The position numbers and the translations under genes are program-made. Shown piece after piece: positions 1,941 through 19,065 of a stretch of DNA of 64,000 nucleotides. The stretch is from Turbatrix aceti (Eukaryota; Nematoda; Chromadorea; Rhabditida; Panagrolaimidae). The stretch is from NCBI GenBank assembly GCA_963969345.1, contig OZ017770.1, forward strand, positions 5,031,246 through 5,095,245. The letters are read 5' to 3'. Under the pieces are notes generated by a model that worked only from the letters and a program-made list of their open reading frames with translations, searched no databases and was not told where the DNA came from. Position 1 is the first letter of the stretch; the number at the start of each line of letters is the position of its first letter.

Positions 1941-3864
1941 ATGAATGCCCAACACCAATGTATAAATTTAGTGAGTTTTACAGACTTTTGTTTTTTAAAG
2001 ATATAAAAGCGTTTTTTTCAGCGTGTGGAATCCCGTCAAGTTAAAGATGCCATCCTTTGTGTCGTTGATACAGCTCTTTTGCACCGCTCTATAGGCAAAG
2101 TATGTTAAAATAATTAATTTCTTCCCATACACATTCTTACTTATCTTTATTTCAGTATAATTATCCAAATCTTACGGGTGAGCAGTACAGAATCGGTACA
2201 ATCGGCATCGAAGAAGTTGCTTGCAATACTATAAACCTCACTTATGTAAGTTTTTTTCTTTACCTTTCATTCTGCTTTTTCGCTTGCGCTCTAGTATTTC
2301 CCATTCAAATTTATTCCAATGGCTTGGAGGTACACACTTTGTCGTCGTTTCTTTCCAAAATTTTTTTTAACCAAAGTTTGCACTATTGCAAGTCACCTGA
2401 CAATCACATGGGGACGAGCTCGCGGGCGTTTGTCTGGAAGCGTGCTTCCCCTCAGTGTTGTCGGGTTACCCGACCCGAAACCCGACCCGACCCGAACCCG
2501 ACCCGAAAATCCCGGGTTTCGGGTCGGGTTACCCGAATTTTTCGGGTTCAGGTTCGGGTTCGGGTCGGGTAACCCGAAATTTTCGGGTTCGGGTTCGGGT
2601 CGGGTAACCCGAAATTTTCGGGTTTGGGTTCGGGTTCGGGTCGGGTTACCCGAAAATTTCGGGTTCGGTTTCGGGTTCGGGTCGGGTTTTCCAAATTTCG
2701 GGTTTGAGAACCCGACAATAAAAGTCAAAATGAGAAAAAAAGTTGAAAAAAACCGTTAAACATGTCAAAAATTTGCTTCTGAAGACGCAATATTTGTTAT
2801 ATTAGCCTCCACAATGCAAAAATTTAAGTACAATTAAATAAATTTACCGATTTTATGAAAAACAAAATTCGGGTTTCGGGTCGGGTTCTTCAGCTAACCC
2901 GCCCAAAACCCGAAAATTTCGGGTTTCGGGTCGGGTTACCCGAATTTTTCGGGTTCGGGTTCGGGTTCGGGTCGGGTTACCCGAAAATTTCGGGTTCGGG
3001 TTCGGGTTCGGGTCGGGTAACCCGAAATTTTCGGGTTCGGGTTCGGGTTCGGGTCGGGTTACCCGAAAATTTCGGGTTCGGGTTCGGGTTCGGGTCGGGT
3101 TACCCGAAAAATTTCCGAACCCGACAACACTGCTTCCCCTCCTCTCATATTTTATCGTTCTAGATAGAGATAACTTTGAACTTTTCCGACATATCACGTT
3201 TCTGATCGAAAAAAAAATTGTAATCCGTTTTAAATTCGCGTGACTTTCGCACTTTGAGTATAGTAGAATAGTGAATAAATGTTTGACTACCGCAGAAAGG
3301 CCTTATTTATAGCAAGGAATGAACACCCGCATTTGCAGGTACGTGTCAACAGCCCAACGCTGGTAAAACGAATTGAAAGCGAAGTTACTTCGTACGTTCA
3401 GCACATGCAGCATATGCCACATACTATATACGGTGCTGAGTCAAACAAACCAGAGCTGGAACTTGAATTTTACCAGAAAAAACCGCAGCGCATTAATCTG
3501 AGCGACGATTTGCCCTGGGAAATCTGGACCATCACGCTGGATATTGTTGAGGCCCAAAACGATGAGTATGAAACCATGCGCGATGAAGTCAGTGAAAAGC
3601 TCAGCGATGAGGTCCTGAATATCTGTCAAATCGTCAACCAACCAAACATTTACGTGCCTGCAATTTCATCTCGCAGCGATTTACCGCTGATCTTTGATAC
3701 TTCGTTTCCCGATGTCCAGCCGTATCTCTTTCGTCTTGTCTGCAACAAAAGTGAGTCATCTTTGTTTTTCTTTTCTATTGTTCATGGCTTTCGTTCTAGA
3801 CAAAGCGGTATCGGAGAGCATTACCGACAGATTTGGAAGACTCGTCAAACACATTCTCTTCTAG
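1941..3864 (+). CDS. ATG101: Autophagy-related protein 101 (ATG101, EPG-9 type)
   Basis: Five exons: 1941-1970, 2022-2099, 2156-2245, 3339-3750, 3800-3864; 224 aa (human 218). ATG101 is the HORMA-fold partner of ATG13 in the ULK1/ATG1 complex that starts autophagosome formation. Recognised from VESRQVKDAI near the N terminus, LLHRSIGK, YRIGTIG, LEFYQKK, LPWEIWTI and FPDVQPYLF, all collinear with the family. The first 17 residues align without gaps to the human N terminus, which supports the tiny 10-codon first exon. Three introns are about 50 nt; the third is 1.1 kb because of a MITE. The loop that carries the Trp-Phe 'WF finger' in human reads Ile-Asn-Leu here (residues 118-120). A possible poly(A) signal AATAAA lies at 4568-4573. 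Confidence 0.93.
2453..3132. mobile_element. hAT-type MITE with tandem-word interior
   Basis: A 680-bp non-autonomous element inside the third ATG101 intron. Its ends are a 15-bp inverted repeat, CAGTGTTGTCGGGTT. Identical 8-bp target duplications, CTTCCCCT, flank it at 2445-2452 and 3133-3140. The 8-bp duplication and CAG-start terminal repeat fit hAT superfamily elements. The interior is two arrays (about 2463-2714 and 2867-3127) of GGGTT/CGGGT words in both orientations around an AT-rich core of about 150 bp. No transposase is encoded. Open frames on both strands through it are artefacts of the repeat. Confidence 0.88.
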
Positions 3865-5461: not shown

Positions 5462-5867
5462 ATGAAGGCCACGCAGAACTCCGACGTTGAGCGTAATGCT
5501 CCGGCGCCGAATCAGAATCTCGAAGATGTCCGCACTCAGGTCGACGATGTCAGAAATGTACGTTGAAATAGATTATATAAGCTTTATGAATAATTTTTTT
5601 TTAAATTTTCAGATCATGGCTGATAACATCACTCGCATAATGGAGCGTGGCAATCGACTGGATGACCTGGACTCCCGCACAGAGGCTCTCCATGCTTCGA
5701 GTCAAAACTTCCAGACGACGGCCCGAACCGTTCAACGCCATATGTGCCGTAAGAATCTCAAATGGACGCTTCTCCTCATTGCCATATTTGCCCTCATTCT
5801 CGCATGCATTCTGATCCTCGTTCTCGATGGCGCTGGCGCTTTCAGCACCTCTTCCTCCAAGAGCTAA
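5462..5867 (+). CDS. Synaptobrevin/VAMP-type v-SNARE
   Basis: Two exons, 5462-5557 and 5613-5867; 116 aa, normal for a synaptobrevin. Order: short acidic N terminus, R-SNARE motif about residues 23-83, short basic linker (CRKNLKW), one membrane span about 87-108 and a 12-residue Ser-rich lumenal tail. The zero-layer arginine is visible in LDSRTEAL (Arg54). As a tail-anchored vesicle SNARE it should pair with syntaxin and SNAP-25 type Q-SNAREs. It is more divergent than neuronal synaptobrevins: the Trp-Trp pair before the membrane span is absent and there is a lumenal extension. It may therefore be a secondary paralogue (snb-2-like) rather than the neuronal snb-1. The 55-nt intron sits just inside the SNARE motif. 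Poly(A) signal at 6050-6055. Confidence 0.9.
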
Positions 5868-6721: not shown

Positions 6722-9700
6722 TTAATGATGATTGTCCATTGCTGCAGTGATTGTCCACGACGGATCTCCACTGCGATGTACGTGTACGCAAACCCAACCG
6801 CGACCGTTGCGCTTTTGCCAAACACGCGTTTCTTGACTCTAAAAAACAAAAAAAAACAGCGTGTTGGCAGGAAAAAAGAACTAAAAAAAGACCTGTCGAG
6901 TGCGAGCTTCTCCGTTTTTGTCAATATATTGAATTAGTCGTACGTAAGCAATGCAAGCTCCTTCTTCGCCCATTAGATGCACGTTGGGATTAAGAACCGT
7001 GGTGTGAATTGGCGGCTTGCGGGCAGAAATGGCATTCATAACTGCTGCTAAAAAACAAATGTAATACGGCTTCGTCTGACGGATGTATGCTAAGAGAGCG
7101 CTGTGCTTGCTCACCGTTGTCAAAGTAGAACTTATGGAAATCGAGGTCCTCTACAAGGTTACCCTGCGCTTCCGGCTCGAAGCATGTCATTGAGGGATCG
7201 CACAACCGCCTGAATAGATATATGGCCTATTTAGCAGTCTGTGTTGGGGGAAGGGCAAAACTTACGAGTATGTGTCAAAATCCTTGCATGCAATGGCATC
7301 CTGAAGCTGCTGGGTAACGCGGACAATTTCTTGCTTTTGAGCTAAAAAAACAGTCAATGATCTATTATTCCGGCGTACGCTTGATTTTTAGTGTTATTTT
7401 TTGTTAATTAAAAAACTTTGCAAAACAGTTAACATTTTTGTCGTGTTGACTGGTTTTCCAATAACAAGGCATTTAGTGCCTCGTACAATGCAAATCTTGT
7501 GGTACAAGAATTCAAAGGTAACTGCAAAAAATTAATATAGTGTGTAATAAATTAAATTTACGTGCACACAACAAAAATTTACATCCTTACATCTGATATA
7601 ATCACTCTTCCTGACTGTAGGCACAGGTTGCTGCGGCATCAGCAGTGTAGATTACCCCTAGGTACCAATAGTACTAGTATTTTCGGAAAGAAGAAGCCAA
7701 ATATACGGGTAAGGCAATGCCAATGGTCAAATATATACACAGAGTGAAAAAAAAACATGTGTACAAGTGTCAAAATATAGACCGTTGCGACATAGAACGT
7801 TACTTAATCCGACTACAAACAATTATAACGGTTTTTAAAGTGACAAACAAAATAAGATATCGGTACCGTTGTGTGTACATAAAAAACCGGGATAATTAAC
7901 ATTTAATTGATTTTATCGCCATCAAAAACATAACTGATGGGTTGTGCCGAACACACTGACAAACGTTTGTTGCCTAGAGTGCATGCAAAGGACTGAAAGC
8001 CGAGTCGTAGGAGTTACGCTCTTGAAAAACAAAGAGTGAGTAAAAAACTCAACATGTCTGTTGTTTAAAAATGTCGATCTCAAAGAAAGTGCCGCTGGCA
8101 AAAAGCATTGACTGCATGCATGCTGCTACTTAAAAACTCGTTGCCAAAGAAGCGAAAAGGGAAAAAATAAAGAAAAGCAGCGCAAGCTGGTCATATTTTT
8201 GCCCGTTGTTGAGACATGAGAGATGGATACTAAATACGTATATTTTAGCTATATATACTTTTTCTTGATTCAACGAATACGTAGAAAACGCGCAGTAAAC
8301 GCAACCAAAACTACGGCAAAAAAATGTAAAACAACTAACGGTAAGTCCATTTTTTTTGAGAAAGCTTTCTGACGCTAACAGACTTGCACTAAAAAAAATA
8401 ATTTTGTTTAATACGTGTTAAATAACGCGCGTGCCGCGCATCGATTTTATATGCATTTAATCCGCGTTGTAAAACGGCACTGAGTGAGTGCTTGAGAATT
8501 AAATATGTATCACCTTGGCTAACTATTATTTTTTGCCACATAAATATTTTTGCTCTCCCTGCCGATCGTAAAAAAACAATAACAGCGTAATGGTTATTGT
8601 TTTGACCAACAAATAAAAAAAGGGGTGCCATTACCAGAGTTGCACGAATTTAAAAATTCATAGAATATTTGCCACGCAATTGTCGTTGACATCAAGTTTG
8701 AAAAAAAGGCATAACGCTTTCCGGCACAAACAATATCCTTATTTAAAAAAAAAATTGGAACAAAGATGAACAAAACTATTGCACGATTAAAATAAGAATC
8801 TAATGTTAGATAAATGAATGAACATATGGAAAACAAATGAAACACCAAATCACAACCAGCTGCCAAATTTTGTACATTTCCAAAAAAATAAATTAATGAG
8901 ACGACATCCACTTTGTAAAAATGTTCAACAGCTTTGACACCAAAACCAAGCCCTTTGTTATATAAAACAAAAAAAAACGTTAGGCAGAGATACGTGCAGT
9001 TGTATAACGTAACTTTTTGGTCGATAAAGCACAAAAAACCGTTATAAATCCAATTTTGTTGTATCTGTTAGAACGAGACACAAGCCAAAGAAAAAAGTTA
9101 ATGACAATACATGTCGTGTAATACCACATTTTGTTTAAATAAAAAAGCTCTTAGTAATTGCGTAATGATGAAACGCATAATCATAAAAGGGTTTAGCATC
9201 CAGGGATTTTTATATCTCACCTGAAATATTGGCAGCTGCAGTTGACAGCGGAGTACGCTGTTGCATATGCGCTGTCACAGCCGTCGCTTGTTGGTGATTA
9301 AAGAAATTTTGACCGTCGGTCGATGTCGCAGGCGCTGCTGGTGATGTGCCAACAGAAGCGGGGCTAGCGTTGTTACTGTTGCTGTGTACCGAAGTGGTTG
9401 TCTTTGCCGCAACCGCAGCGGCTGTGCCGGCGTTTGGATCGACGTGAACGACGGTATTCTCGTGTTTCAAAAGATTTCCGCTGGTTCCAGCTAAGATAAA
9501 ATAAAAGTAAAAGTTCAAGCCGAAAGTTCTGATTAATAATGTGCAAATTTAGTGTGCGTAGAAAAGAAGGAAATTGGAAATGCACGAAACAGTAGCACAG
9601 ATTTTGTTCAAACAAATTTAAATATTTAAATACTGATACTACGACCATTGGAACGCCGAAAATGGACATACGCGCGAAAGCTCCTGGAGGCAGACGAAAA

Positions 9701-12700
9701 CAGATGGGCCCGACGACTGACCTTGTGGATACCACAAGGAAAACGACCCGTGGGACACCCTTCCTTACGATGGGCCGATTCGCTCAACTCGGTGTTCAAC
9801 AAGACGAAAAACAGACCACAACGACGAGGGGAAGAAGAAATCGCGACCAAAACGAATCGAGACATTTACGCCTACGTGGACGTCATTTGTGCCTCCTAAC
9901 ATCTGGTCTAATGATAACTAACCACTGAGTAATGGTGAAATAATAATAATAATAACTACGACCATTTAAAAGTAAATATATTTTCATAGCAATATTAATG
10001 TTGAAAAGAGTGCGATTGTTATTCACAGAGAAGTCATAGATGTCAAAACAAAGTAAAAGTAGAAGCGGTATGGGCAAGCGGGTTTAGGTGGCTACATAAA
10101 TCCAATGAAAGCAAAGTTCGTTAATCTTTATTGTTCCATATTAATCAAAAAGCACTCCATGAAAAAAAAATAAACGTGATGTCAGCGCTCCGAAAAAAAA
10201 ATAAACACATTGAACGGGGTATTTAGAAAACTGTTTGAAGAACACAAAGCGAAAACATCGAAGGTATTGGGTTGACGGATAAGTCCCCGAGACTTTCGGC
10301 TCATTTCTCGGCTTTACACTTTTTCAGTTAATTAAATGACAAATCTTTCCGGCAAAGCTTTCAAAAAGATCCTTCTAAGTAAGAAAACAACGACCAAAGT
10401 CATTCTGAAGCCACGTTGATTACGGAATTTCTTAACAGATAAGGGTAATTCTGTTATGAAGACTAAAATAACCCCCGTCTCAGTTTTTGAATGACAACAA
10501 AAAGTGATGTTTTCTAACGTAGGTAACAACTGCTTATAACGACTTGAAATGCGACGACCGGAAACTTACTTGTGTATAGTGCAAGTCGAAAACCTAATTT
10601 TTTTGCCCAAAGAGTATTTCACATACACAAACTTTTGGAAGTCCGTGTCATCTGAGCTGTTCTGTTAAAAACGCATGCAAAGCAATCCAAAATAACTTTT
10701 CCGTCAACACAATATATCCGCATGCAAAAGATGAGAAATGAGAACAAAAAGTATATTGTCTGTTATTAAAAACCAAATGAACCACAACAAATGAATGATG
10801 CATAAAAGCCATGAATGAGTCCACAGCAGAGTGTATAATTGTCAAACCAAAAATAAATCGGCCCAGTTAACAAGGAGGAGAAGAAGGAGTATGAAAAAAG
10901 AAGCTTGCAGTGAGAGAAAACGGTATTTAAGACGAACAGATCATGCTGCATCTAGATGTATATTAAACAAAAGTACGGTTAATTCAAAAAATCTGAATAG
11001 TTTTAAATTAATTACGGTAATGTAAAGGAGTAGTGCAGAGCTTAGTTTTTAACCGTTGGTTATCGTCTTAATTTTTTCAACCTGAACTGTTTAAAAAATG
11101 ACTCTCGTAAGAAATGTTTTAAATTTGAAGAAATGAAAAAAAATCTTGGATAACTTAGCATCATGAAATGAATTAAGCAGTGAAGTTAAAAATCACCTTT
11201 CTCGGAATCCTGTTCGTCGATGGTTTGCGACGATTCGCTCGATTCTTTAATCGTCGAAGGTGGCGCCTCTTTCTTGTTCAGCAAGTTGCGACCTATAAGA
11301 AGTTAAGACCGCATTAAATAAAAGATTTTTTTAAAGAGGCAGGAAAGCTTTAGGGATAAGAACACTTGTCAATGCATGCACACCTGAATTGAGTATCGTT
11401 TCGCGTAAATTAAAGTGAAAATGAGAAGATGATTCGTGCTCCGCGTTGCTAAGCTTTGGCAGCGATGATGGCAACGAATCGAGTGATACGTCCCTCAGAC
11501 TTGCATGCCCGGAATCATTGTTGACTGAGGAAGAGGTATCGGGAGCACGAATTGCTGACTGCTCCGACAGGCCACTGTACGTGTCCCAGTTTGATATAGA
11601 TTCCGAAGATGCCCAGTGATTTTTAAAAGATTTGAGTAAATTTTTCTTTTTGTCGTGCAAAAACCGCTTGTTTGATGGAACTTCGTAGTCATCGATTGAT
11701 ACAAACCGGCACTTATCAAGACCCAAACTGCTTGGAACACTGTTACCCGTACCATTTTTTACTTCAGGCCGTTGTTCATCAACCGCATCGACATCGACAC
11801 CGGCATCATCGGCATCAAAACTATGCTGCGGGACTACGGGAAGATTGCCAACAAAGAACCAAATTACAGCTGATAAAATCAGCGGCCAAGCGTAATTAGC
11901 AATCGCAATTATTTGGTTGACCAAATCAATTTCATTTGCCATTTTAAGCAACAAGATGTGGCAGCAAACAATAACATTTGCTGCGTGTTGAGTTAAGCCA
12001 AATAATTAATTAGGAGTATGTAGTCGTGTAAACTTTAGCAGCATAATAAACACAAGACATTTGAAAAAGAGTAGCTCGTCAGTAAACGAGAGAGACATCA
12101 CACCGAACTTTCGCGGTAGGCCTTAGTGTGTCTTTCTTTGTAATGACAAAAGCATCTCAAAGCATCTTTCAAAGAAAACAGCCTCTAAACTAGATCTATC
12201 AAAGTCCGCTAAAATGAGTAAAACTCAATAATGCAATTGCTGCGTGCACCAGAAGAGCCAGTCACTTGATACGCATAAAAAATTAATTCCATATTTTTGC
12301 CAAATCTTTGCGATAGCGGCTGCAACCAACAGGTGTATTGCCAGATTTTTATGAACAAATAAATAAATATTTTACTACACTGTTTTCAACAAAGTGCGGA
12401 CCTCAGTGATTTATCAAGCGCGCATAAAACCCGGCAGTGTAATTGTTTTTTTGCAATAAAATGTTTAAAACTATTAAATCTGTAATGCAATTATTATTTT
12501 GAATAATAAAACATGTTGTATTTTTACTCTATGGCTGCCAGCAGACATTTGGCAGGTGAGTTCGACTCCAGTTTCATGCAAATAAAAGCGGCAGAAAAAA
12601 AAACGGAACAAAAATTGCAACAACAAATAAGTGTGCATGCATTGACAATATATGAAAAGCCTCGGAATAAACTTACTTGAAAGATTACGCGTAGCAATCA

Positions 12701-15081
12701 TCGTCGTGAGAATGGCACCCTGAAATATGAATTTGGTTTCAGTGAGAAATTCTATCCCCTTTTCGTGAGTAAAAGCCAAGTTATGGATAAAAAGAAAAAA
12801 GCTCGAGTTGTATAAGTTAAAAAATCCGAGTTAAGTTCAAGCGACGAACGACAAGAGATGATCAATGGGTTTAAACGAAGCAAGTCAGAAGTAATAACCA
12901 AGAAAATTATCAGTGTGTGCAGGCCAAAATAGCTTCCAAAATTGTAAATCGCAAAAAAAAAACGCTACTGAAAAAACCACAGGCGTATAAAAATAAAGAC
13001 AATAGGGCAAATTGCTCTCAGTTAAGAAGTAAGTATCATAGCAGCAAAGGTTTGAATACCGTATTTTTTTGGTTACCGCGTGATCAATGAAGCAATTTCA
13101 TTGGATTCAAAAAATGTGCACATCCGTCAGTCTATTTTAGAAATTCCAAAAAAATCGTGAGTTCAGGCAATCTCGAAAGCTTGATAGCTGTTGAAAGCGA
13201 ACTTAAAAAACTGCAAAAAAAAATTAAAAAAGTAGTGGTGTTGCGTTTCAATTATTTTTTTTACGTTTGGCATGGTCGTACCTCTTCAATGAGTGGTCTC
13301 TTTGGCGGACACGGAGACACGGTGCATGATACAGAAGTATAAGACGCTTCCGCGCTTGTTGACGGTTTATCACTGTTGTTAAATGATTGAAAGTTGTTTT
13401 CTGGAATGCTCTCAGTAGGGGTTTGGGGGCCGCTGTCATTTGATGAAGACGGCTTAGACTGGGCTTCGGACGCCGCAAGTATCTGCTTAATAATGCTCGG
13501 AGATTGAGGCGCTGACCCCGGACCACCCGTGGAGTTGCGGAAGACACCGCTCATTCGATTGACGACGGTAACTGCGGATATAGCCGCCTACGCAAAAAGT
13601 TTTGTTGGTTATTCAAATAAAAAGTCAGTAACAGAAAAGGGTGTCAAATCGGGGAAATAACAAGGAAAACTTGACACATTAGAGCCCAGGGGGTCGAGAC
13701 TGACTGAAAAGCCTATCAGACAATCACCCTTCCCTCTGTCTTTCTTTGGTAGTCAGCATACGACAGTACACCGCTCAAAAAACAGGCGCACAGACAGCTA
13801 CAATCAAGAAGCAATGCCAAACGGTAATATCAGAAGGAAAGATAAAGTAGAAAAAAACAAAACTTAAATGAAAGATAAAAACTTGACTATGACTTTACGA
13901 TGAAGCAAAAGTTACCTTAAGCTTTCGTCGAGCATTGAATTTGCGCAAGCAGTCGACAGTATCTTGACGATGCATCATCGATGCAACACGATCACGGTTC
14001 TAAAAATACAATAAACCACTGCCGCAGCCACAACAACCACTCACGCAAATCCAAGGAACGCGCAGCGCTTGGTCGGCAGTAATGCGTTTTTTTGGATTAA
14101 CAGTCAGCATGCTGTCGATGAGGTGTTTAGCCTCGGGAGTCACGGTATCCCATTCGGGACTTGGATACTGCAAAACTGGATTACCGAAAAGTTGGCAAAG
14201 TCGTGCGACTTACGTCATAGGCACCGGCTTTGATCTGATTGTAGAGCCGGTGCTGATCCTCGTCCCAGAAAGGCGGATAGCCGACAAGCAGGATGTACAG
14301 AATGACTCCGCAAGCCCACAAATCGACAGCACGACCGTAGGGATCCTTCTTGAGCACCTCTGGCGAAAGATATCCTGGAGTACCAGCAAATCCATACCAC
14401 GCTTCAGAGTCGCCCTGTACTTCTATAGCCAGACCAAAGTCGGCGAGTTTGACAGCAGCTCCCTTTGCTCTGCTGGCAAGCAACAAATTTTCTGGTTTCA
14501 GATCGCGATGAACCACATTGTTTGCGTGACAGTATGCAATGGACTCCAAAATTTGCTGAATGCAATGACTGGCATCGGCTTCGCTGTAGAATTCGCGGGC
14601 AACGATGTCTTCAAAAAGCTCACCGCCAGTAACTCTGCAGAAATGCGTGTCAAACATGTGCATTGCGTGTGAAAAAATTTATGATAACTCACAAATCAAA
14701 AACTAGGTAGTGAAAGCCTTCTTCCTGAATGCTATCGTGCAGACGAACAATATTCGGATGCTGTAATTTGCGGCAGATTCGAGCCTCACGCTCTAGCTTT
14801 TGGAAGTCTGAAAAAAATAGCTTTTATCCCCAACTTCTTTTCTGTGGGCATTGATGGCTTACCGCGGGCAGATAACTTGCGAGTATTAATTATCTTAGCC
14901 GCGAATTCCATGCCAGTAGCTTTTTGAATGCATCGTCGAACAACAGAAAAGGCTCCTCTGAATAAGAAAAAAAAATTAATTAAGAGAATAAGAAGACGGA
15001 AGAGAGATAAAAGCCAACTAACTTTCCGAGTTCTTCCTTGATTTCGTAATTATCACTGAATTTTGTCGATAGATTATTCAT
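6722..15081 (-). CDS. unc-43: Ca2+/calmodulin-dependent protein kinase II (UNC-43)
   Basis: Fourteen minus-strand exons: 15081-15023, 14957-14863, 14807-14693, 14634-14214, 14167-14045, 13999-13916, 13587-13282, 12719-12677, 11292-11197, 9490-9221, 7341-7266, 7209-7115, 7047-6893, 6838-6722. All phases agree; 684 aa with every exon. Kinase domain about residues 12-270: glycine loop GKGAFSVV, Lys41, HRD Asp134, DFG Asp155. The autoinhibitory/calmodulin region holds the autonomy threonine in HRQDTVDCL (Thr285). A variable linker follows, then the hub domain from [10 protein letters not shown] to VHVHRSG. Identity to the Caenorhabditis protein is striking in [30 protein letters not shown] and WVCVHVHRS. 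Linker exons 13587-13282 and 9490-9221 look optional; the first can be skipped in frame. A leader acceptor lies 21 nt before the ATG. The long introns hold one retroelement remnant and otherwise AT-rich sequence. Confidence 0.96.
9650..9954 (+). mobile_element. 5'-truncated non-LTR retroelement (RTE/CR1-like tail)
   Basis: A 305-bp insertion in the CaMKII intron between exons 10 and 9, opposite in orientation to the gene. It is bounded by 12-bp target duplications ACTACGACCATT (9638-9649 and 9955-9966) and ends in a short (TAA)n tail. The plus-strand frame reads [11 protein letters not shown] and [16 protein letters not shown], the characteristic C-terminal end of non-LTR retrotransposon ORF2. 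It is far too short to be active. Confidence 0.85.
11384..11942 (-). CDS. unc-43: Alternative CaMKII exon encoding a membrane anchor (alpha-KAP-like)
   Basis: A 559-nt open exon on the same strand, between CaMKII exons 8 and 9. From ATG 11942 it encodes 186 residues. A hydrophobic stretch (residues 11-32, including [13 protein letters not shown]) is followed by an acidic, then Ser-rich, spacer. It ends at a GTGTGC donor in phase 1, which joins exactly to exon 9 (11292), also entered in phase 1. The product would be 455 aa: membrane segment, spacer, the linker from RNLLNKKE onward and the complete hub, with no kinase. Mammalian alpha-KAP has this design and arises from an internal promoter. 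The frame is also open back to a possible weak acceptor near 11980, so inclusion as a cassette exon in full-length CaMKII is an alternative. Exon reality is well supported by length and phase; expression cannot be seen. Confidence 0.62.
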
Positions 15082-17767
15082 ATTTGGAGGCACTACCATA
15101 TCCTGCTTAACAGAAGCTTGCTAACAAAAATCGACCCGATGACCAGGAATATAATTCTCTGCTTCGTATGACTGAGATGGCTTTTGCAAGATTCACAGGT
15201 TTCTGAGCATGTTTTATTCCAAGCAAGAAATCTTAATTAAGCTGCCAGCTTCTGAAAAACGCCGTAATTTGAGTGACTGTCATACAAGATGCCAAAAACA
15301 TAAAAATGTACTTGCGAAAAAACAAAGTACGCGCAAAACGTAACATAAGAGGAAAATTGTTTAACAACCAAATTTCAGGAATTCTCAACGTTGTAATGAG
15401 AAATATTGCGGTTGTTAAGCGAACGTAAAAGTAAGCATACACAAAAACGGATGTCTTCATGTGGATCAATAAGCTCTTTTCAGAGTCCAAAAGCATGGCT
15501 TTTTATTGACATGGCAAAAGTGAGGCAAATGCACGCATCTACATATCTAGTCGTAGTACAAAAACCATTAATCTAAAATATACAGAACTCTGCATTGCAC
15601 AACACATTGCATCCATTAAAAATCCGTTTTTTTCTCATCTAGAGACTGCGAAGAGGGCGTTGGATTCGATGGCAATATTTATAATTAACCACGCACATCG
15701 GCTGCAATAAGAGTCAAATTATTGAAACAACAAAGTGCTTGACTTCTCGCAAAATAATAAAACAGTTGTTTTCACTAATTTTATGGGGTTCTTCCGTCCT
15801 CATAGATACAAGAGGATACAAGAACAAAGTGCGGATTTTAGCATTGCCCTTTTAAAGGACTCTGAAAACTCACGTAACATGCACAAACACAGTAGGACTA
15901 ATTTCAAGATGTATTACAAAAAATACAATAGTTTGCATGCTGCGTGCAATATTTTGGCATCCTCATACGTTAAAGACGCCTTCAACAAAACGCAGCAAAA
16001 CATTCTTATTTTTTTGGAGTAAAAGGTGCTACAAAAGCAAAAAGCTAAGTTAGTTTTCTCCTTATGCATACGAATGCGATATAATGTCTCTAAAAGCCCT
16101 CCGTCTTATGCATAAAAAGCCAAAAGCTTCTTTGGCGAGCAGGTGCGAAGATATGGTGTGTGTGTATGTGCAATCAAGTTGAGTAATTTTACTTACGAAA
16201 ACCTGGAACATTAAAAAAAAGTCAAGTGAGATAGATACTTGGTCGATAATCAATGCGTGGTGCGGAATAAACTGACACTGAAAAATATACAACGCTTATG
16301 TGATGAAAATTAACAAAAAAAGTGCACCAGAAAAGAATTATTTTTTAGGAATGAAAGGAAGAAGAGCCAAGGCAACCAGGCAGGCCGAAGGAAAGCAAAA
16401 AACAACAAACGTGACTGATGCTGTGGTAAAAACAACTAACTAAGCGGTACGTACAGCAAAACTCGGAGACAAATGAAAAAATGAAGAAAAAGATGGATGA
16501 AGTGCGCGTGTGGTGCGTGTATAAATATATTTTTATATTTATACATATATATTGTATGAGTAGCACGTAAAGCACCTCACATACGCAACACAACAACAAC
16601 CAAGCACTGGCACAAATCTCATGCGGAGACGCAATCCTGTGAATTGGTAATTAGAAAATTAAATAATACACTCAACATTTTTATTTGTAGTGATAAAAAC
16701 ATCATGAACAAATTAACAACCGGGTAAGTGTATTTTGAGCGTCAAACTGATGGCTTTAAAAACAAATATCGCGTTTTGTTATGCAAAATGCAAAGAATCA
16801 GGGGGATTGGAAAAGCTATTGAAAATATTTAATACTGAACATAGCACTTTTAAACACCTAGTGCGTTTGACTTTAAAGTGTATTGATTGGTCCCAATGCA
16901 GTCAATCAATAGAGGAATTAAAATAAAAGCACTCTCAACCGCAGGATATGTTTTGTTTTCACATAACTTGTAGGATTTGTCTCAAAAGCACAGCCGACCG
17001 GATGAGCGGCCCAACTACTATTTCAGATTAAAGGTTAAGGGACTTCCTTTTCTTCTAACGTTCAAATTACAATGTCTCAAGTCATTCCTTTTCGTTTGAA
17101 CGAGCGGCGGAAAAGGGTAATCAGGGTGCTATATTTGACAGGCTATGATTTCCAGGTGCGCAAAAAAAGCAAAAAAATGGAGTCATGCATACTGAAACTG
17201 AAAAGCCTGCTGAGTGATTTAATGCAGATGAGAAAAGAGGGTGCGGGAGGAATGACAAAACCTCATAATAATCGGCAACCATGAGAGCCTGATGCATCCC
17301 TCATCTTGAAAATGCAGTTTTTGTTACAAATGACGAAGTGACATAAGTAAAAAAATATTCATAGCAAATAAATGCTGCAGCGCATGAAAATAAATAGGAC
17401 TATGCACCCTACAAAGTGATGTTGCAAAGGTGATGATGATAATTCAACTGACGGTGGATGACGTGACAAGCGGCGTGGTGCTTGCTTGTTCACTCCAACA
17501 TACATATTGTCGGCGAAAAATAACACCCGCGTAAAGAGTCACGCTTTTCTCCACATCTTCCAGAAGAGCAATAAAAAATTGACTTAGAATTTCACTGAAA
17601 GCATATTATTCTTCATACTGTAATTTTTAAATAGTAGTAAAATCGCAGCAATAAATAAAGCATGTTGAGCAGCATGTGGTCATTAAATGGACCATTAACG
17701 AGCAAAAAAAAACTATTTTGTACTAATTTTCTGCGTCTGAAGATAAAAAGTACTGTTAAGGCTACTG
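15082..17767. other. Intergenic between CaMKII and a TIR element, no gene recognised
   Basis: AT-rich region upstream of CaMKII, presumably holding its promoter and any 5' untranslated exons. Open frames such as 17072-17284 lack domain or splice support. A TA-rich patch lies near 16515-16558. Confidence 0.55.
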
Positions 17768-18001: not shown

Positions 18002-19065
18002 TAATTGCATAAAAAAAGATTTTGGGCCAAATTTTAACATTTTTTGATTTTTTGATTTTGATTTGTAAATGCGGTAATATTTCAAGCATTTCGGTGGGTT
18101 TTTTAAATAAATCGAACAATTTTTGATTGAAATCGAGTAGGGTTCGGAAGAAAAAATCCACAGATCTTCAAAATGTAGACAAAAATCTGAAAATTTCAGT
18201 ACAGACTAAAAACTAAATTTCCTTTCGAATGACATACTCAGTTTTTTGATAACGAATTGATAAATGTCCAAAAAAACGGTTTTTTTCGGAAATTTGAAAA
18301 TTTCGGAACTTTTTCGAACTTTGATCAAAATGTGAATATCATCAATCGATAGAGCGGTATCTTTTTTATCTAGTACCAACATTTCAGATAATTATCGAAT
18401 CGCATGGGCATACGGTAGCGATTCTCCCGAACCCTACTTGTTTAAGCGCCTGAGGCTATGAGGTAAAACACTGCTTAGCAAAACGAGATAAAACATTTTG
18501 TTAGAAATTTTTCGGTCTACAAAACGGTGTAACTCTTGAATTTCTATCTATTTTTTTGGCTTCACCAGATTAATTCGCGCAACATACACTCATTTTTGGT
18601 ACCAATTTTCCGACAATCGAGATCAAAAAAGGGGGGTCGGGGGAAAAATCACCATTGGCTCAGCTTTGAAACGTTATGGCAAGAATCTTGACACCGGACG
18701 TAAAAAACCCCGTAGAATTCAAAAATTTTACTATTTTGTTCCTAAAAGTTCGAAAAAGTTCCAAAATTTTCAAATTTCCGAAAAAAACCGTTTTTTTTTG
18801 ACATTTATCAATTCGTTATCAAAAAACTGAGTATGTCATTCGAAAGGAAATTTAGTTTTTAGTCTGTACTGAAATTTTCAGATTTTTGTCTACATGTTGA
18901 AGACCTGTGGATTTTTTCTTCCGAACCCTACTCGATTTCAATCAAAAATTGTCCGATTTATTCAAAAAATGCACCAAAATGCTTGAAATATTATCAAATT
19001 TACTAATCGAACCCAAAAAAAAGTAAAACAAATCTAAATTTGGCCCAATTATTTTTTTGCAATTA
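18002..19065. repeat. Foldback with 320-bp inverted arms
   Basis: Left arm about 18002-18322 and right arm about 18744-19065 are reverse complements with few differences. Shared landmarks are GGGCCAAATTT, AGGGTTCGGAAGAAAAAATC, CAGTACAGACTAAAAACTAA and AACGAATTGATAAATGTC. The spacer is about 420 bp. The transcript of either strand could fold into a long hairpin. It is probably a non-autonomous foldback or MITE nested in the larger TIR element. Confidence 0.85.

What the first reader, a model, noticed from the sequence alone, without database searches (positions are those of the whole stretch)
11384..11942. Nematode alpha-KAP analogue: membrane-anchor exon inside the CaMKII gene
A 186-codon open exon with an N-terminal hydrophobic segment lies between the calmodulin-region exons and the hub exons. 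Its phase-1 donor fits exon 9 exactly. A transcript starting here would encode a kinase-less, membrane-anchored hub able to co-assemble with CaMKII and tether it. Mammals make such a protein (alpha-KAP) from an internal promoter, so this would be either an ancient design or a convergent one. I do not know whether it has been described in nematodes.
Basis: partly seen in the sequence, partly recalled or inferred. Interest (0 to 1): 0.88.

Follow-up and report, generated by a model that had tools for sequence, protein, structure and literature searches.

The report
Membrane-anchored kinase-less CaMKII form in nematodes
A nematode CaMKII gene hides an extra starting exon that would make a version without the kinase but with a membrane anchor, and related worms carry the same arrangement, so worms probably tether this memory-related enzyme to membranes much as vertebrate muscle does.

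Summary
On the minus strand, inside the CaMKII (unc-43-type) gene, 11942-11384 is an open 186-codon stretch with a good start context, an N-terminal hydrophobic helix and a phase-1 donor that fits exon 9 (11292-11197). ORF length alone is weak evidence (about 0.7% by chance in the gene's long introns). The decisive evidence is comparative. Annotated Panagrellus proteins carry a homologous leader (tblastn E 1.6e-10) spliced to the same junction, [GS]RNLLNKKE, and run into the hub with no kinase. Hydrophobic leaders at that junction also occur in Steinernema, Bursaphelenchus, filarial worms, Nippostrongylus and Caenorhabditis auriculariae. Profile comparison supports common descent of the panagrolaimid, Steinernema and filarial leaders (0 of 150 shuffles), not of the rhabditine ones. 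Best reading: an alternative first exon that makes a kinase-less, membrane-anchored hub, working like vertebrate alphaKAP. Its leader shows no similarity to a fish alphaKAP leader, so it is an analogue at the corresponding junction, not a demonstrated orthologue. Kinase-less C. elegans isoforms are already in databases, but the two I saw lack a membrane-like leader on the octanol scale. I found no paper describing the anchored form. Transcripts, topology and co-assembly are untested.

The parts
11384..11942 (-). Alternative first coding exon (leader): ATG at 11942, 186 codons + 1 base, hydrophobic N-terminus, disordered middle, phase-1 donor at 11384
   Evidence: homologous leader in Panagrellus P0002/P0003 (tblastn E 1.6e-10)
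11844..11912 (-). Codons of the hydrophobic helix, residues 11-33 ([23 protein letters not shown])
   Evidence: Hydropathy 1.86 over residues 11-29; helix 2-33 with block pLDDT 77-94
11490..11519 (-). Codons of [10 protein letters not shown], residues 142-151; DSGH[VA]SL is shared with Panagrellus and Bursaphelenchus leaders (DSGxxS is the form of a beta-TrCP degron, recalled)
   Evidence: of 2000 shuffled Bursaphelenchus leaders 29 reach 6 of 7 with the window, 24 with Panagrellus, 0 with both
11197..11292 (-). Exon 9 ([31 protein letters not shown]), shared acceptor for the kinase form and the leader form
9221..9490 (-). Exon 10, linker
7266..7341 (-). Exon 11, start of hub (association domain)
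7115..7209 (-). Exon 12, hub
6893..7047 (-). Exon 13, hub
6722..6838 (-). Exon 14, end of hub and stop codon
   Evidence: CaMKII_AD E 6.9e-53 over the whole profile
12677..12719 (-). Exon 8, calmodulin-binding end ([14 protein letters not shown]), spliced to exon 9 in the kinase form; absent from the leader form
13916..15099 (-). Kinase-domain exons 1-6 of the same gene (15023-15099, 14863-14957, 14693-14807, 14214-14634, 14045-14167, 13916-13999)
7591..7639 (-). Second candidate alternative first exon ([17 protein letters not shown]) joining exon 11: a hub-only form without linker or anchor
   Evidence: Frame and donor; tail resembles Panagrellus P0003 KKSDYVR|SQKQEIV (tblastn E 0.097) and P0134

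Best explanation
11942-11384 is an alternative first coding exon of the CaMKII gene. Transcription from an internal start (promoter not located), or an outron trimmed by SL trans-splicing, gives an mRNA in which this exon is spliced to exon 9. The protein has no kinase or calmodulin-binding segment. It has an N-terminal membrane helix, a long disordered linker and the complete hub. Hubs of this form would mix with full-length subunits in the CaMKII ring and hold the holoenzyme at a membrane, as alphaKAP is thought to do in vertebrate muscle. Shown by sequence: exon, frame, junction, helix (predicted), hub, and conservation in other nematodes. Inferred: transcript in this species, hub facing the cytosol, co-assembly, tethering.
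For: Leader homologous to that of Panagrellus P0002/P0003 (window residues 7-158, 30%; tblastn E 1.6e-10 against the whole window without composition correction, blastp E 1.9e-10 against 46 leaders with it; first 45 residues z 12.7 against block shuffles). Those proteins continue at GRNLLNKKE into linker and hub without a kinase. Same architecture and junction in Steinernema P0007/P0020, Bursaphelenchus P0018, Onchocerca P0022, Loa P0029, P0006 (species cut off in the listing), C. auriculariae P0033, Nippostrongylus P0068. Panagrolaimid pair against a profile of two Steinernema, two filarial and P0006 leaders: hhalign score 24.2 against 10.6 +/- 2.6, 0 of 150 shuffles reach it. Of 31 kinase-containing proteins whose exon 8 - exon 9 junction could be read, 29 have at most 16 residues there. 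Start context AAAATGG and best donor of 76 in the intron. Hub intact: CaMKII_AD 6.9e-53; C. elegans hub 2f86 E 1.3e-59. In the own genome the leader was found only at this place. Canonical SL1 sequence in 8 of the 15 loci then held, so trans-splicing is available. C. elegans has annotated kinase-less forms with other leaders at the same junction (P0130, named; P0047, species name cut off in the listing but on a contig of the same length as the C. elegans rows).
Against: No transcript data. The related proteins are annotation products of unknown evidence. The leader-only protein search found no hit at E <= 1. Window against single leaders of other families is not significant (blastp E >= 1.5; p 0.036-0.78); the link is through Panagrellus and through profiles. 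C. auriculariae, Nippostrongylus and Bursaphelenchus hydrophobic segments do not clearly match the joint profile above shuffles (22, 29 and 11 of 100 reach the score). Flanking charges predict hub-in-cytosol for 5 of 11 nematode leaders, tie for 2, and the opposite for 4, including the window. Codon signal is weak. The hydropathy cuts also pass a buried kinase helix of UNC-43. Three of 39 kinase-containing proteins (P0048, P0050, P0062) have a hydrophobic stretch in their linker, so a hydrophobic stretch near here is not unique to kinase-less forms. An out-of-frame ATG lies at 11977.
Confidence: 0.77

Rival explanations
1. In-frame cassette exon: the stretch is spliced from exon 8 through an acceptor at 11981 and inserts 199 residues, with the hydrophobic segment, into the linker of full-length CaMKII.
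For: With the acceptor at 11981 the exon is 597 nt, phase 1 on both sides and open. Two of the 31 readable junctions, Caenorhabditis gene models P0048 and P0050, insert 169 and 122 residues at exactly this junction, and both give hydrophobic linkers (hydropathy 2.5 and 1.97).
Against: The acceptor scores 1.2, near the bottom of the gene's own 13 (0.5-11.6), and two upstream AGs score 5.7 and 6.6. The 63 nt upstream of the ATG have no codon signal (-0.38). The inserts in P0048/P0050 contain the first-exon leader of kinase-less P0047 (KKIANAI..LV.RR.SPSIRR) behind extra read-through residues, so they look like merged models. In the anchored relatives listed the leader starts at a Met, though P0206 and the catfish model P0143 run on upstream.
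Confidence: 0.12
2. A separate gene nested in the intron: the frame runs on unspliced to the stop at 11333-11331 and encodes a 203-residue membrane protein unrelated to CaMKII.
For: The frame is open for 50 nt beyond the donor.
Against: The Panagrellus homologue is fused to the hub at the same junction. The tail after the donor has no codon signal (-0.28). No Pfam family matches the leader.
Confidence: 0.05
3. The anchored hub is made but acts chiefly as a dominant modifier or scaffold (for example clustering receptors or diluting kinase subunits in the ring) rather than as a tether for CaMKII activity.
For: Kinase-less subunits would lower the number of kinases per ring (established hub assembly; inference).
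Against: Nothing here separates the two functions; the membrane helix makes tethering the simpler reading.
Confidence: 0.2
4. The open frame is a chance stretch of intron.
For: A run this long occurs in 0.67% of simulated 6.56-kb intron sets; codon signal is weak.
Against: Conservation of sequence and junction in Panagrellus.
Confidence: 0.01

Closest known systems
Vertebrate alphaKAP (kinase-less product of CAMK2A)
   Same: No kinase or regulatory domain; N-terminal hydrophobic segment; complete association domain; leader joined just after the RN[LF]S end of the calmodulin region (catfish P0143 joins at GGKSG, window joins at GRNLL). PMC5882894 (passages) states that alphaKAP comes from an alternative promoter, has the complete association domain and is thought to target CaMKII to the sarcoplasmic reticulum.
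   Different: No similarity of leader sequence (all 100 shuffles of the catfish leader score as high or higher). The nematode leader is 148-200 aa in the tylenchine proteins and window, 96-105 in Onchocerca, Loa and P0006, 63-75 in the two rhabditine ones, with a disordered part; alphaKAP's leader is short (about 25 residues in rat, recalled; 26 in the catfish model counted from its MPF). No KKRK-type nuclear signal (recalled from alphaKAP) in the window linker.
Kinase-less UNC-43 isoforms of C. elegans (P0047, 298 aa; P0130, 230 aa)
   Same: Alternative leader joined at the same exon-9 boundary, then linker and hub.
   Different: By the octanol scale their leaders are not membrane-like (+1.7 and +2.2 against -12.3 in the window); by hydropathy alone P0047 reaches 1.79, P0130 0.28. 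Neither matches the window leader at E <= 10.
Basic leaders in Caenorhabditis, Auanema, Necator, Mesorhabditis (MDGLLARLKLGSKKKKK type)
   Same: Kinase-less hub forms at the same junction.
   Different: Polybasic start and no hydrophobic segment; may bind membranes by charge or enter nuclei (inference).

Membership tests
CaMKII hub (association-domain) proteins | Complete CaMKII_AD domain | tested here: met
   PF08332 E 6.9e-53, profile 1-128 of 128; hub of C. elegans 2f86 E 1.3e-59
alphaKAP-type proteins | Kinase and calmodulin-binding segments absent from the product | tested here: met
   Only hub-type families found in the 455-aa product; the anchored relatives carry no kinase domain in the listings
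alphaKAP-type proteins | N-terminal membrane-spanning segment | tested here: met
   By prediction only: hydropathy 1.86, octanol -12.3, confident helix 2-33
alphaKAP-type proteins | Leader exon spliced at the junction just after the calmodulin-binding exon | tested here: met
   Window E8|E9 boundary; fish product P0143 joins at the corresponding residue; vertebrate intron position and phase not seen
alphaKAP-type proteins | Transcription from an internal promoter | not testable with these tools
   No cDNA or 5'-end data
alphaKAP-type proteins | Leader sequence homologous to vertebrate alphaKAP | tested here: not met
   Score 7.3 against joint nematode profile, 100 of 100 shuffles score as high; z -0.6 pairwise; one fish leader tested
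alphaKAP-type proteins | Hub on the cytosolic side | tested here: inconclusive
   Charge difference: 5 of 11 nematode leaders C-in, 2 ties, 4 N-in, window among the last
alphaKAP-type proteins | Co-assembles with CaMKII and targets it to a membrane | not testable with these tools
   Needs biochemistry

The most novel reading that the evidence does not exclude
A membrane-anchored, kinase-less CaMKII hub was already present in the common ancestor of three suborders of Rhabditida (Spirurina, Tylenchina, Rhabditina), arose independently of vertebrate alphaKAP at the corresponding junction, and was replaced in the C. elegans lineage by soluble or basic leaders. That would explain why the main worm model never showed it and would make CaMKII membrane anchoring by kinase-less hubs a repeated invention.
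Probability: 0.4. Interest if true: 0.75.

Novelty: new variant of a known kind. Interest (0 to 1): 0.64.

Why it matters
CaMKII placement decides what it phosphorylates, and alphaKAP is known from vertebrates. An anchored kinase-less hub across nematodes, including parasites, gives a second, apparently independent case and a cheap genetic system to ask what such a subunit does. It also bears on worm genetics: alleles that remove the first exon or kinase exons (as the conditional deletion in PMC10015018, passages) would leave hub-only products from internal starts intact (inference), so 'null' phenotypes may not be null for the hub.

Tried and rejected
A leader-only search of the protein database found nothing at E <= 1 among 863 candidates; this first looked like lack of conservation, but the linker-hub search brought up the relatives: the leader diverges fast. 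Pfam on the leader alone: no family at E <= 1. Rfam SL1 model: 50 hits, none over its cut-off, and hits in 4 of 14 control genomes, all bacterial or archaeal, so not used; the exact SL1 22-mer was used instead. Upstream AGs as trans-splice sites: best of 29 is 12209 (6.6), 267 nt before the ATG; 11981 is weak (1.2), so the 5' end stays open. AlphaFold2 with 10 sequences: mean pLDDT 46, good only for the N-terminal helix, so no fold search was run. Pairwise leader comparisons outside Panagrellus are not significant. A join of exon 7alt to exon 9 tried breaks the frame; 7alt fits exon 8 instead. Wrong exon edges were corrected; the leader-hub product was not affected.

Literature: ten searches of open-access PMC full text. 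I saw listings, and passages in PMC5882894, PMC8155201, PMC10015018, PMC5963920 and PMC2265522. Nothing in those listings and passages describes a membrane-anchored kinase-less CaMKII in a nematode. The alphaKAP paper of 1998 is not held.

Full report
WHAT IS THERE. The window lies in a 59.9-Mb genome that holds exact copies of the canonical nematode SL1 sequence (22-mer recalled; in 8 of the 15 loci then held). On its minus strand is one CaMKII gene; the best hits of its linker-hub part are an unnamed JGI protein (81% identity) and Panagrellus proteins, so the animal is probably a panagrolaimid (inference). Exons 1-6 encode the kinase, exon 8 the calmodulin-binding end, exons 9-10 the linker and 11-14 the hub, all joined in frame. 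A 306-nt exon at 13282-13587 is the counterpart of the AAISAV... cassette in C. elegans P0049.

THE EXON. Between exon 8 and exon 9, 11942-11384 is open in one frame: ATG in context AAAATGG, 186 codons, then one base and a gt donor. Joined to exon 9 it continues through the linker to the end of the hub, 455 residues. The donor is the best of 76 GT sites in that intron by a matrix from the gene's own 13 donors. Residues 11-29 reach a hydropathy of 1.86 and the octanol minimum is -12.3 kcal/mol; the rest of the product reaches only 0.62 and +5.2. The same test passes one buried helix of the C. elegans kinase (1.68, -12.28), so hydropathy alone is not proof of a membrane span. AlphaFold2 gives one helix at 2-33 (block pLDDT 77-94) and low confidence without secondary structure through the rest of the leader; the whole model is poor (mean 46).

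CHANCE. Stops are rather rare in these introns. A 224-codon run appears in 0.67% of 1500 simulated 6.56-kb intron sets and in 0.1% of 3000 simulated 1384-nt introns. The codon score favours the claimed frame over the other five, but weakly, and fades toward the donor (0.05, 0.34, -0.03, -0.16 in four successive parts). Sequence statistics alone would leave doubt.

CONSERVATION. The linker-hub search (best 120 of 5848 listed) and a second search with the Onchocerca product (best 120 of 957 listed) returned kinase-less proteins from many nematodes. Among 32 leaders of 19 residues or more that end at the exon-9 junction, 10 pass both hydrophobicity cuts and two more (P0006, P0068) fall just under the hydropathy cut. 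The 32 include isoforms of one gene, two leaders without a hub (P0138, P0206) and truncated kinase models (P0001, P0038, P0040, P0123). Panagrellus P0002 aligns with the window exon over residues 7-158 (30%, tblastn E 1.6e-10 against the whole window) and goes on ...[18 protein letters not shown]. The first 45 residues share WPL.LS.VIW...G.LP and score z 12.7 against shuffles that keep the hydrophobic block. Bursaphelenchus shares DSGHxSL with both: of 2000 shuffled leaders 29 reached 6 of 7 with the window, 24 with Panagrellus, none with both. The panagrolaimid pair against a profile of two Steinernema, two filarial and the P0006 leaders gives hhalign P 4e-05, and 0 of 150 block shuffles reach its score. 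Against the window alone those leaders are not significant, except Wuchereria at p 0.036. The rhabditine leaders (C. auriculariae, Nippostrongylus) sit at the same junction and are hydrophobic, but do not match the joint profile above shuffles (22 and 29 of 100), and Bursaphelenchus hardly (11 of 100). Nippostrongylus P0068 also departs from the hub before its end. Taxonomy of five compared species: Tylenchina (three), Spirurina and Rhabditina within Rhabditida. So the arrangement is seen in three suborders; common descent of the leader is supported for Tylenchina and Spirurina and open for Rhabditina.

HOW IT MOST LIKELY WORKS. The exon serves as an alternative first exon. The product lacks kinase and calmodulin binding, keeps the whole hub and starts with a predicted membrane helix. 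CaMKII hubs form rings of mixed subunits (established knowledge), so the product should enter rings with full-length subunits and hold them at a membrane. The disordered part of about 150 residues would act as a spacer; its DSGHxS motif fits the form of a beta-TrCP degron (recalled), which would allow phosphorylation-dependent removal (speculative). The hub must face the cytosol; flanking charges do not decide this (5 of 11 leaders for, 2 tied, 4 against including the window).

RIVALS. A symmetric cassette reading through acceptor 11981 is formally open (597 nt, phase 1-1) but uses a weak acceptor (1.2). Among 39 kinase-containing proteins with the NLLNKK motif, the exon 8 - exon 9 junction could be read in 31; 29 have at most 16 residues there, and P0048 and P0050 have 169 and 122, with hydrophobic stretches. 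These two favour the cassette, but their inserts contain the P0047 first-exon leader behind extra residues and look like merged models. P0062 has a hydrophobic stretch elsewhere in its linker. A nested unrelated gene is contradicted by the fused Panagrellus homologue.

COMPARISON WITH THE KNOWN. Vertebrate alphaKAP has the same architecture and joins at the corresponding residue (P0143). PMC5882894 (passages) gives its alternative promoter, complete association domain and proposed role at the sarcoplasmic reticulum. The one fish leader tested shows no similarity. C. elegans has annotated kinase-less forms (P0047, P0130), and other rhabditines have basic leaders. So kinase-less nematode hubs are already in databases; the membrane-anchored, conserved version is what I did not find described in ten open-access searches. 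Filed as a new variant of a known kind: it works like alphaKAP, and membership by descent fails the leader test.

LIMITS. The related proteins are annotated or predicted products whose transcript support I could not see. No other nematode genome could be searched here, so exon positions in relatives are inferred from protein junctions.

Noticed in passing
window 7591-7639 (-), intron between exons 10 and 11: A second candidate alternative first exon, [23 protein letters not shown], would give a hub-only form without linker or anchor; several nematode-type proteins (P0129, P0131, P0134, P0135, P0136) have short leaders at this junction.
   Followed up: partly
window 5616-5867 (+), just downstream of the CaMKII gene on the other strand: Synaptobrevin/VAMP-type exon (PF00957 E 1.5e-21), tail to tail with CaMKII.
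   Followed up: partly
window 6893-7047, hub exon 13: The hub carries five more residues (around [16 protein letters not shown]) than a mammalian alpha hub; Panagrellus has the same length and other nematodes vary here.
   Followed up: no
P0047/P0042 (Caenorhabditis) and P0013 (Steinernema): Kinase-less forms with similar basic leaders (SR+.SPS..RR...RK.S.P) in two suborders, perhaps a second conserved leader type (by eye); no counterpart found in this window.
   Followed up: partly
window 2468-3115: Minisatellite of about 41-nt units rich in TTCGGG.
   Followed up: no
window 18012-19058: Foldback element with 267-nt arms, 89% complementary, upstream of the CaMKII coding exons.
   Followed up: no
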